Positions 14,000 to 14,878 of a stretch of DNA of 45,558 nt are shown in pieces. The notes under the pieces were generated by a model, which was not told the DNA's origin, did no database searches, and was given only the letters and a program-made list of their open reading frames with translations. The position numbers were made by a program, and so were the translations under genes. Every line of letters begins with the position of its first letter. The stretch's first letter is position 1. The stretch is from Planctomycetota bacterium (GTDB lineage: Bacteria > Planctomycetota > Phycisphaerae > Phycisphaerales > UBA1924), in the NCBI GenBank assembly GCA_024276195.1, contig JAJRXR010000080.1:1-45558 (forward strand). Direction: 5' to 3'.

Positions 14000-14878
14000 A
14001 TGAGCGCACGAGTGATTGATGGCAAGGCGCTGGCCGCGGAGGCGCGGGCGGGGATCGAGCGGCGCGTCGCGCTGGTTCGTGAGTCGGGCGGGGTGGTCCG
14101 TCTGGACGCGGTGCTGTCGTGCTCGGGCGATTCGCCGTCGCGGGTGTACGCCCAGAATCAGGCGCGGACGTGCGCTGAGCTGAGCATCGAGTATGTCTTG
14201 CACGAGGTGGGGGGCGGGTGCTCGCTGGAGGCGATCTGCGAGAAGGTCGTGGCGCTGAATCACGACCCTGCGGTCATCGGGATGATGGTCCATATGCCGC
14301 TGGCGGATGGAGTGGACGCGTACGAGGTGCAGCGGCTGATTGATCCGAGCAAGGACGTCGAGGGCGTGAACCCGGCGAATATCGGGAATGTGGTCTATGG
14401 GCGGAGCTCGCTGGCGCCTTGCACGGGGCTGGCGGCGGTACGGATGATCGAGTCCACGGGGGCCGAGCTGCGCGGGGCGCGGTGCGTGGTGGTGGGGGCG
14501 AGCGATGTGGTGGGCAAGCCGATCGCGGTGCTGCTGATGCGGCGCGAGGCGACGGTGGTGAGTTGCAACGAGTGGACGTGGGGGGTCGAGGAGCTGTGCG
14601 CGTCGGCGGACGTGCTGGTGTCGGCGGTGGGCAAGCCCGGGCTGATCCGGGCCGAGATGGTCAAGCCCGGGGCGGTGGTGGTGGACGTGGGGACGAGCCG
14701 GGTGACGGACGAGAGCGGGAAGACCCGGACGGTGGGGGATGTTGAGTTTGAGGGGGTTTGCCGGGTCGCGGGGTGGGTGAGCCCGATGCCCTGGGGGGTG
14801 GGGCCGATGACGGTGGCGGCGCTGCTGTCGAACGTGGTGGAGGCGGCGGAGCGGGCGAACGGGATCGGGCGGCGATGA
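14000..14878 (+). CDS. folD: FolD-family methylenetetrahydrofolate dehydrogenase with altered cyclohydrolase residues
   Basis: A 292-residue FolD homologue. FolD normally oxidises 5,10-methylene-THF and then hydrolyses methenyl-THF. The Rossmann domain ([17 protein letters not shown], 163-179) and C-terminal WGVGPMT are conserved. However, residues tied to cyclohydrolase chemistry differ: the Lys of YxxxK is Q54 (YAQNQ), the Gln of VQLPL is H98 (VHMPL), and the second Asp of DVDG is E121 (DVEG). The usual Arg of VVGRS is A167, and PCTP reads PCTG. It may therefore be a dehydrogenase without cyclohydrolase, possibly with changed cofactor preference; this is inference. The ATG at 14000 is preferred over 13991: CTAGG lies nine bases upstream. 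It diverges from ligA across a repeat-filled region and is followed by tatA. Confidence 0.88.

What the first reader, a model, noticed from the sequence alone, without database searches (positions are those of the whole stretch)
14000..14878. FolD homologue with all three cyclohydrolase-linked residues replaced
Seen: YxxxK reads YAQNQ (Q54), VQLPL reads VHMPL (H98), DVDG reads DVEG (E121). VVGRS reads VVGAS and PCTP reads PCTG. Established: in bifunctional FolD/MTHFD1 the Lys (human K56), Gln100 and Asp125 support methenyl-THF hydrolysis, and changing the Lys abolishes cyclohydrolase while dehydrogenase can survive. Inference: this protein may be a dehydrogenase only, needing another cyclohydrolase (for example FchA), or it may act on another pterin; the lost Arg suggests a shift from NADP to NAD.
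Basis: partly seen in the sequence, partly recalled or inferred. Interest (0 to 1): 0.7.

Follow-up and report, generated by a model that had tools for sequence, protein, structure and literature searches.

The report
Dehydrogenase-only FolD paired with FchA
This bacterial folate enzyme, normally a two-reaction enzyme, lacks the lysine needed for its second reaction, and its genome instead carries a separate gene of the family that performs that reaction, a split shared by a large and apparently overlooked group of relatives that database models label as two-reaction enzymes.

Summary
The three substitutions are real. Window 14000-14878 (+) encodes a 292-aa FolD with Gln for Lys54, His for Gln98 and Glu for Asp121. 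They are not local: Gln54 and Glu121 are fixed in 50 of 50 FolDs read from four families of the order (His98 in 49); two sister families keep Lys/Gln/Asp. In the phylum sample FolDs fall mainly into K54/D121/P143 and Q54/E121/A143 types. An FTCD_C (FchA-family) gene is in 97 of 98 sampled genomes of the four Q-type families and 0 of 53 of the two K-type families. In the own genome I found one folD and one single-domain FTCD_C gene, and no Fhs, formiminotransferase or methanopterin cyclohydrolase. Published E. coli K54N and Q98H mutants keep some dehydrogenase and lose nearly all cyclohydrolase; yeast MTD1, a dehydrogenase-only enzyme, also has DVEG and no Lys. Most likely this is a dehydrogenase-only FolD with FchA as cyclohydrolase. 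That division of labour is known elsewhere; I found the Gln/Glu subfamily, which NCBIfam's best-scoring models name bifunctional, in none of the papers I could search. The VVGAS argument for NAD fails (P. aeruginosa FolD, assayed with NADP+, has VVGAS). No activity was tested.

The parts
14000..14878 (+). folD, 292 aa, predicted dehydrogenase-only 5,10-methylene-THF dehydrogenase (Q54/E121 type)
   Evidence: ORF and translation; Pfam; closest PDB FolD 4a5o E 1.7e-57; AlphaFold2 model mean pLDDT 94.5 with TM-scores around 0.9 to solved FolDs
14147..14161 (+). YAQNQ motif, residues 50-54; Q54 codon 14159-14161 where bifunctional FolD has the catalytic Lys
   Evidence: Q in 50 of 50 clade rows; lies in helix 46-60 of the model
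14291..14293 (+). H98 codon (Gln98 of E. coli FolD)
   Evidence: H in 49 of 50 clade rows; 42 of 68 Q-type rows outside the order keep Gln
14360..14362 (+). E121 codon (Asp121 of E. coli FolD; DVDG to DVEG)
   Evidence: E in 117 of 117 readable Q-type rows of the order and phylum sample, D in 66 of 66 K-type rows
14426..14428 (+). G143 codon, PCTG where K-type FolDs have PCTP and Q-type FolDs mostly PCTA
14498..14500 (+). A167 codon of VVGAS
   Evidence: same residue in P. aeruginosa FolD, which was assayed with NADP+
14567..14572 (+). N190-E191 codons, aligned to HR of P. aeruginosa HRFT, near the cofactor site (site assignment recalled)

Best explanation
The gene encodes a folate-specific methylene-THF dehydrogenase that has given up the methenyl-THF cyclohydrolase half-reaction of FolD. 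Without Lys54 the active site oxidises 5,10-methylene-THF to 5,10-methenyl-THF but does not hydrolyse it; Glu121 is a co-inherited change at the pterin-binding acid. A separate single-domain FTCD_C protein (FchA family, elsewhere in the same genome) then makes 10-formyl-THF. Shown: sequence, residue fixation, gene content, co-occurrence. Inferred: the activities of both proteins.
For: Residues: 54 is Q in 50 of 50 and 121 is E in 50 of 50 clade FolDs read, so this is a maintained state, not decay. No Lys lies in helix 46-60; the Lys are at 9, 82, 118, 173, 212, 222 and 241. Published E. coli FolD mutants: K54N about 19% dehydrogenase, no detectable cyclohydrolase; Q98H about 8% dehydrogenase, about 1% cyclohydrolase (PMC5688156, passages). 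Yeast MTD1 (1edz), named a monofunctional NAD+-dependent dehydrogenase in a title of the reference list of PMC11064299, reads YATWT and DVEG. Own genome (91% complete): one folD over the cut-off, one FTCD_C gene, no Fhs match, no PF02971 match, so FTCD_C is the only enzyme candidate I found for making 10-formyl-THF. Order: FTCD_C in 97 of 98 f1-f4 genomes, 0 of 53 f5-f6 genomes. Outside the order, in 126 read genomes: non-K FolD only 70 with / 10 without FTCD_C; any K FolD 23 / 23; among Fhs-negative genomes 27 / 6 against 2 / 14. FTCD_C lies directly before a Gln54 folD in three loci: L206 (13 nt gap), L124 (G196, with Fhs further upstream) and L275 (Armatimonadota; this one keeps Asp121). 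The own FTCD_C matches NCBIfam FchA best (3.6e-19, below its cut-off) and PDB FchA 7vg4 (2.9e-10), and keeps PGGG, SD and NV..N.
Against: No enzyme was assayed. The E. coli mutants are single changes in a K-type background and lose most dehydrogenase too. On the FolD tree K against non-K needs only 2 changes, so co-occurrence rests on few independent events (independent pairs: 1 on starred branches, 2 on all, sign test p 1). G125 (92% complete, Q-type FolD L016) has no FTCD_C gene found: its one match is a 57-residue piece under the cut-off, and my own profile finds nothing in the 18 kb around it. The FTCD_C of the own genome is divergent (122 bits Pfam; 69 bits against a 275-bit FchA cut-off) and lies on another contig. 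The nearest PDB hits of that protein are called cyclodeaminases (1o5h, 1tt9), ahead of FchA. Six non-K genomes outside the order have neither FTCD_C nor Fhs (G271, G366, G215, G252, G319, G432; completeness 90, 72, 73, 76, 61, 54%). In many K-type and Q-type genomes FTCD_C is part of a fused formiminotransferase-cyclodeaminase, so at phylum scale FTCD_C is not always a dedicated FchA.
Confidence: 0.79

Rival explanations
1. The Q54/E121 enzyme is still bifunctional: another group (for example Arg56, His98 or Glu121) replaces Lys54 in the cyclohydrolase step, and FTCD_C does something else.
For: Single-mutant data come from a K-type background. Residue 56 is Arg or Lys in 38 of 50 clade rows. 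In G125 no FTCD_C gene was found; Fhs was not searched in it. Six non-K genomes outside the order show neither FTCD_C nor Fhs. PMC9173628 (passages) could not settle whether the lysine is the catalytic base.
Against: The types split cleanly with Asp121 and Pro143. FTCD_C tracks the non-K state, most strongly where Fhs is missing (27/6 against 2/14). Five of those six exceptions are at most 76% complete. His98 is not general in the Q type. Yeast MTD1 shares DVEG and lacks the Lys.
Confidence: 0.13
2. Dehydrogenase-only FolD, but methenyl-THF is hydrolysed mainly without an enzyme, and FTCD_C is incidental.
For: PMC5688156 states that the hydrolysis can occur spontaneously and that K54N E. coli survives, growing very slowly (passages). 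No FTCD_C gene was found in G125.
Against: FTCD_C in 97 of 98 f1-f4 genomes and 0 of 53 f5-f6 genomes; FTCD_C directly before a Gln54 folD in L206, L124 and L275.
Confidence: 0.05
3. It acts on another pterin such as methanopterin.
For: Mch is present in part of the same order (12 of 151 genomes).
Against: All 12 Mch hits are in f6, so none is in the own genome or in f1-f4; the f6 FolDs read are K-type. The protein has the FolD domain PF00763 and its model matches FolDs.
Confidence: 0.02
4. The gene is decaying under relaxed selection.
For: The window protein is rather divergent (highest identity 67% to the relatives sampled) and has local oddities (PCTG, PMPWGV, E191).
Against: Open frame; 39 invariant columns in an 18-row alignment of Q-type proteins that includes it; the substitutions at 54 and 121 are fixed in 50 of 50 clade FolDs read; it is the only folD over the cut-off in the genome.
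Confidence: 0.02

Closest known systems
Bifunctional FolD (E. coli 1b0a, P. aeruginosa 4a5o, human MTHFD1 DC domain)
   Same: Same two domains, length and fold; Tyr50 and Lys9 kept
   Different: Lys54, Gln98 and Asp121 replaced; Pro143 to Gly (Ala in most relatives)
Yeast MTD1 (1edz), NAD-dependent monofunctional dehydrogenase
   Same: No catalytic Lys (Thr there) and DVEG in place of DVDG
   Different: Only 5e-12 similarity to the window protein over part of it; MTD1 has NRSE and an Asp aligned to position 190; closer bacterial MTD1-like FolDs exist in f26, f47, f59, f85
Clostridium perfringens FolD + FchA + Fhs (Aluri et al. 2016; seen only as a title in a reference list; content recalled)
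   Same: Separate FchA performs the cyclohydrolase step
   Different: Sequence of that FolD not compared here; no Fhs was found in the window's genome
FchA, methenyl-THF cyclohydrolase (7vg4; NCBIfam NF045657)
   Same: The proposed partner in the own genome is related to this family
   Different: Partner is divergent and below the NCBIfam cut-off

Membership tests
FolD / THF dehydrogenase-cyclohydrolase (Pfam PF00763 + PF02882) | Both domains over the curated cut-offs | tested here: met
   77.9 and 185 bits against 32.8 and 27
Bifunctional FolD | YxxxK catalytic lysine | tested here: not met
   YAQNQ; Q54 in 50 of 50 clade rows; no Lys in helix 46-60
Bifunctional FolD | Gln98 and Asp121 | tested here: not met
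   H98 and E121
Bifunctional FolD | Measured cyclohydrolase activity | not testable with these tools
   Needs an assay
Bifunctional FolD (NCBIfam models) | Score over a curated cut-off | tested here: not met
   Best NF010786 258.8 bits against 421; of 30 families matched the 25 shown are all named bifunctional and none reaches its cut-off
Monofunctional dehydrogenase with separate FchA | FTCD_C gene in the same genome, not fused to formiminotransferase | tested here: met
   PF04961 one hit, PF02971 none
Monofunctional dehydrogenase with separate FchA | Dehydrogenase activity with THF substrate and cyclohydrolase activity of the partner | not testable with these tools
   Needs assays
FchA (the partner, NCBIfam NF045657) | Score over the curated cut-off | tested here: not met
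   69.1 bits against 275; the L206 protein beside a Q-type folD also misses it, 142 bits
MTD1 (NAD-dependent monofunctional) | Close sequence relation to MTD1 | tested here: not met
   Hit to 1edz only 5e-12, last of 27; the seven MTD1-like rows form one branch apart
Methanopterin C1 pathway | Mch (PF02289) in the genome | tested here: not met
   No match in the own genome

The most novel reading that the evidence does not exclude
Bacterial FolD is split into two old subfamilies with a simple code: K54/D121/P143 enzymes are bifunctional, Q54/E121/A143 enzymes are dehydrogenases only. The second type is spread over many families of this phylum (Gln54 FolDs in 47 of 77 families read outside the order) and also occurs in SAR324 and an alphaproteobacterium, with a Q54/D121 relative in Armatimonadota; the models that best match it call it bifunctional. 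E121 would be a compensating change that keeps hydride transfer efficient once the lysine is gone. The residue at 54 would then predict whether a genome's 10-formyl-THF depends on FolD alone or on FchA or Fhs.
Probability: 0.63. Interest if true: 0.6.

Novelty: new variant of a known kind. Interest (0 to 1): 0.45.

Why it matters
FolD is usually described and annotated as a bifunctional enzyme and has been studied as an antibacterial target (carolacton hydrogen-bonds the lysine that is missing here; PMC5688156, passages). If the Q54/E121 group is dehydrogenase-only, many genomes carry a wrong second activity in their annotation and flux models, FchA becomes the likely source of 10-formyl-THF in them, and the pair offers a natural experiment on how one active site gives up one of two reactions. 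[quoted passage not shown] that does not hold here.

Tried and rejected
Another pterin: rejected on absence of Mch. NAD shift from VVGAS: rejected because P. aeruginosa FolD has VVGAS and was assayed with NADP+; E191 leaves the question open. FTCD_C as the cyclodeaminase half of a formiminotransferase enzyme: rejected for the own genome (no PF02971 match). It is true for the second FTCD_C of G003, G019 and G158, which is fused to PF02971 and followed by a K-type folD (domains confirmed for G019). 'FTCD_C is exclusive to Q-type genomes': rejected at phylum scale; 21 of 43 K-only genomes have it, at least 13 of these as a fused formiminotransferase-cyclodeaminase, judged by eye from adjacent coordinates. 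Many Q-type genomes also have the fused form. 'FTCD_C in every f1-f4 genome': rejected, G125 is an exception. A test by independent pairs on the FolD tree gave too few pairs. Papers: 10 searches; the term 'FolD' also matches 'fold', and searches found nothing. I read passages only of PMC5688156, PMC6443876, PMC9173628, PMC7219735, PMC11064299, PMC3338484 and PMC3368264, and no whole paper. Human K56 mutant data were recalled and not read in an original paper.

Selection: the 126 phylum genomes whose FolD I read were picked by hand out of 264 with a PF00763 match: low-scoring ones by family, plus high-scoring ones chosen with and without FTCD_C. The Fisher values therefore describe the table and are not corrected for sampling or kinship. 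Within the order, 50 of 96 f1-f4 FolDs and 18 f5-f6 loci (17 genomes) were read; the rest are judged by identity only. FTCD_C and Fhs presence was taken from printed genome rows and typed into the scripts; two weak Fhs matches under the cut-off (G180, G320) were counted as absent and one partial match (G405, 6.2e-12) as present. The two Fhs-negative K-type genomes with FTCD_C (G193, G236) have the fused form.

Full report
The gene. Window 14000-14878 (+) encodes 292 aa with PF00763 and PF02882. The closest solved proteins by sequence are bifunctional FolDs, P. aeruginosa 4a5o first at 1.7e-57. Of 30 NCBIfam models matched, the 25 shown are all named bifunctional, but the protein reaches the cut-off of none of them. 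An AlphaFold2 model from 26 sequences has mean pLDDT 94.5 and matches FolDs and MTHFDs at TM-scores around 0.9. The window is contig C70 of a 3.04 Mb, 88-contig genome, 91% complete, with one folD over the family cut-off and two weak partial matches under it. I did not name the organism by a tool; from recall the neighbourhood looks like Phycisphaerales.

The observation. Residues 50-54 read YAQNQ, 98 is His and 121 is Glu, with no gap in the motifs against 25 named FolDs. Y50 and Q54 lie in model helix 46-60. All Lys of the protein are at 9, 82, 118, 173, 212, 222 and 241, so none has moved into that helix.

Spread within the order. A protein search of 151 genomes finds FolD in 146. In families f1-f4 the listed matches are at least 52% identical to the window protein; in f5-f6 the listed matches are 28-38%, apart from second copies. 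I read 50 of the 96 f1-f4 FolDs found: the own one, the 29 next best matches and 20 picked by hand from f2-f4. Residue 54 is Q in 50, 121 is E in 50, 98 is H in 49 and F in 1. All 18 f5-f6 loci read (17 genomes) have K, Q and D. So this is a fixed trait of a clade as far as it was read.

The partner. PF04961 (FTCD_C, the FchA family) is over its cut-off in 97 of 98 f1-f4 genomes and matches 0 of 53 f5-f6 genomes. The 98th, G125 (92% complete, Q-type FolD), has only a 57-residue piece under the cut-off, and my own profile finds nothing in the 18 kb around that place, so it counts as an exception. In the own genome there is one single-domain gene at G000:C65:68059-68565, with no folate or histidine gene recognised by eye among the ORFs of the 11 kb listed around it. 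Its protein matches 1o5h and 1tt9 (named cyclodeaminases) and then 7vg4 (methenyl-THF cyclohydrolase) in the PDB, and NCBIfam FchA at 3.6e-19, below that model's cut-off. PF02971, the formiminotransferase half of FTCD, is absent from 38 of 41 genomes searched, the own among them. Fhs is absent from 38 of 41, the own among them. With no Fhs, no formiminotransferase and no second FolD found, the FTCD_C protein is the only enzyme candidate I found for making 10-formyl-THF from methenyl-THF, subject to 91% completeness.

Beyond the order. In 294 genomes of the phylum PF04961 is in 228, PF00763 in 264, PF02971 in 173 and Fhs in 170, 168 of them over the cut-off. I read the FolD of 126 genomes outside the order, picked by hand, from 77 families. 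Two main types appear. K-type rows (66, order included): K54 66, Q98 66, D121 66, P143 66. Q-type rows (118, order included): E121 in 117 of 117 readable, A143 in 106 of 114 readable. Position 98 is His in 49 of 50 rows of the order but Gln in 42 of 68 others. A further 18 rows have neither K nor Q at 54: seven MTD1-like and eleven others, of which four keep D121. The triple change thus breaks into a subfamily signature (54, 121, 143) and a mostly local change (98). By genome: Q only 56 with FTCD_C and 8 without; Q plus other 2 with; other non-K 12 with and 2 without; K only 21 with and 22 without; K plus Q 1 without; K plus other 2 with. Among genomes without Fhs: non-K 27 with FTCD_C and 6 without, K 2 with and 14 without. 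The six exceptions are 54-90% complete. Family f17 shows the contrast inside one family: K-type G222 and G429 lack FTCD_C, five Q-type genomes have it, and Q-type G366 (72% complete) does not. Families f35 and f64 hold both FolD types with FTCD_C on both sides, so they give no contrast.

Gene order. FTCD_C stands directly before a Gln54 folD in L206 (13 nt apart), in L124 of G196, where Fhs lies just upstream on the same strand, and in L275 from a named Armatimonadota genome, whose FolD has Gln54 but keeps Asp121. Conversely, the three f1-f4 genomes in which a fused FTCD was found (G003, G019, G158) carry a K-type folD next to it, besides a Q-type housekeeping folD in the two where both were read (G003, G019; the G158 folD is partial). 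This fits: a cyclodeaminase yields methenyl-THF, and a bifunctional FolD can hydrolyse it. That reading is inference.

Tree. A FastTree of 201 FolDs with columns 54, 98 and 121 left out needs 2 changes for K against the rest and 9 for the Q label, so the types are old and few changes separate them. The independent-pair test has 1 pair on supported branches and 2 on all, so it cannot establish correlated gain. The co-occurrence evidence therefore rests on gene content across clades and on gene order, not on many repeated gains.

Mechanism. The window protein carries a non-Lys residue at 54 and the very Q98H change. In P. aeruginosa FolD the aspartate positions the pterin head group and the glutamine positions the lysine (PMC3338484, passages). 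The lysine is also given a part in the dehydrogenase step (PMC3368264, passages), which speaks for some compensation here. Yeast MTD1 (1edz) reads YATWT and DVEG; a title in the reference list of PMC11064299 calls it a monofunctional NAD+-dependent dehydrogenase, although that paper's own text says 'only cyclohydrolase function', probably a slip. Loss of the lysine together with Asp-to-Glu thus occurs in an enzyme known to be dehydrogenase-only. I infer that Q54/E121 FolDs oxidise methylene-THF and leave hydrolysis to FchA, or that it can be bypassed where Fhs exists.

Cofactor. VVGAS is not evidence for NAD. Position 191 in the clade is K 34, V 5, I 4, R 4, E 3 of 50. The window protein, with A167 and E191, may prefer NAD, but I would not claim it.

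Known and new. Separate FchA enzymes are known, and PMC7219735 cites work on C. perfringens FolD, FchA and Fhs (passages; that work itself was not read). What I did not find in print is the Q54/E121 subfamily or its link to FTCD_C in this phylum. The searches were made; a 2024 survey of the family across life (PMC11064299) has no occurrence of FchA, planctomycet- or lysine in its main text. That is a limited search of open papers only.

Verdict. Observation confirmed; main interpretation well supported though unassayed; methanopterin rejected; cofactor open. It is a new variant of a known kind: a split of FolD's two activities between two proteins, marked by a residue signature across a broad bacterial subfamily whose best-matching models call it bifunctional.

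Noticed in passing
window 16614-18062 (+): A cardiolipin-synthase/PLD-like gene is interrupted by one in-frame TAG at 17688-17690; sequencing error or pseudogene not told apart.
   Followed up: partly
L161, L162, L163, L164, L168, L169, L171 (families f26, f47, f59, f85): Bacterial FolDs related to yeast MTD1 (L161 matches 1edz at 2e-60), with YxxY[AT], DVEGL or DLEGL, LPCT[PA]L, NRSE and Asp at position 190.
   Followed up: partly
L084:4345-6660 (+), L083, L036: Full formiminotransferase-cyclodeaminase followed by a K-type folD in three genomes of the Q-type families; a Q-type housekeeping folD was also read in two of them.
   Followed up: partly
L251, 4001-4858 and about 5854-6690: Notoacmeibacter sp. 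locus with the matched folD and, about 1 kb on, a Q-type folD.
   Followed up: no
L016 (G125): A Q-type FolD genome, 92% complete, in which no FTCD_C gene was found; Fhs not searched there.
   Followed up: partly
G011, G031, G043, G052, G082, G088, G097, G100, G103, G112, G118, G136: Methanopterin cyclohydrolase (Mch) is present in 12 genomes of family f6 of the order and nowhere else among 151.
   Followed up: no
L137, L140, L144, L151, L154, L155, L158, L160, L165, L170 and L134: Further FolDs with Ile, Leu, His, Trp or Thr at position 54, some of them second copies.
   Followed up: no
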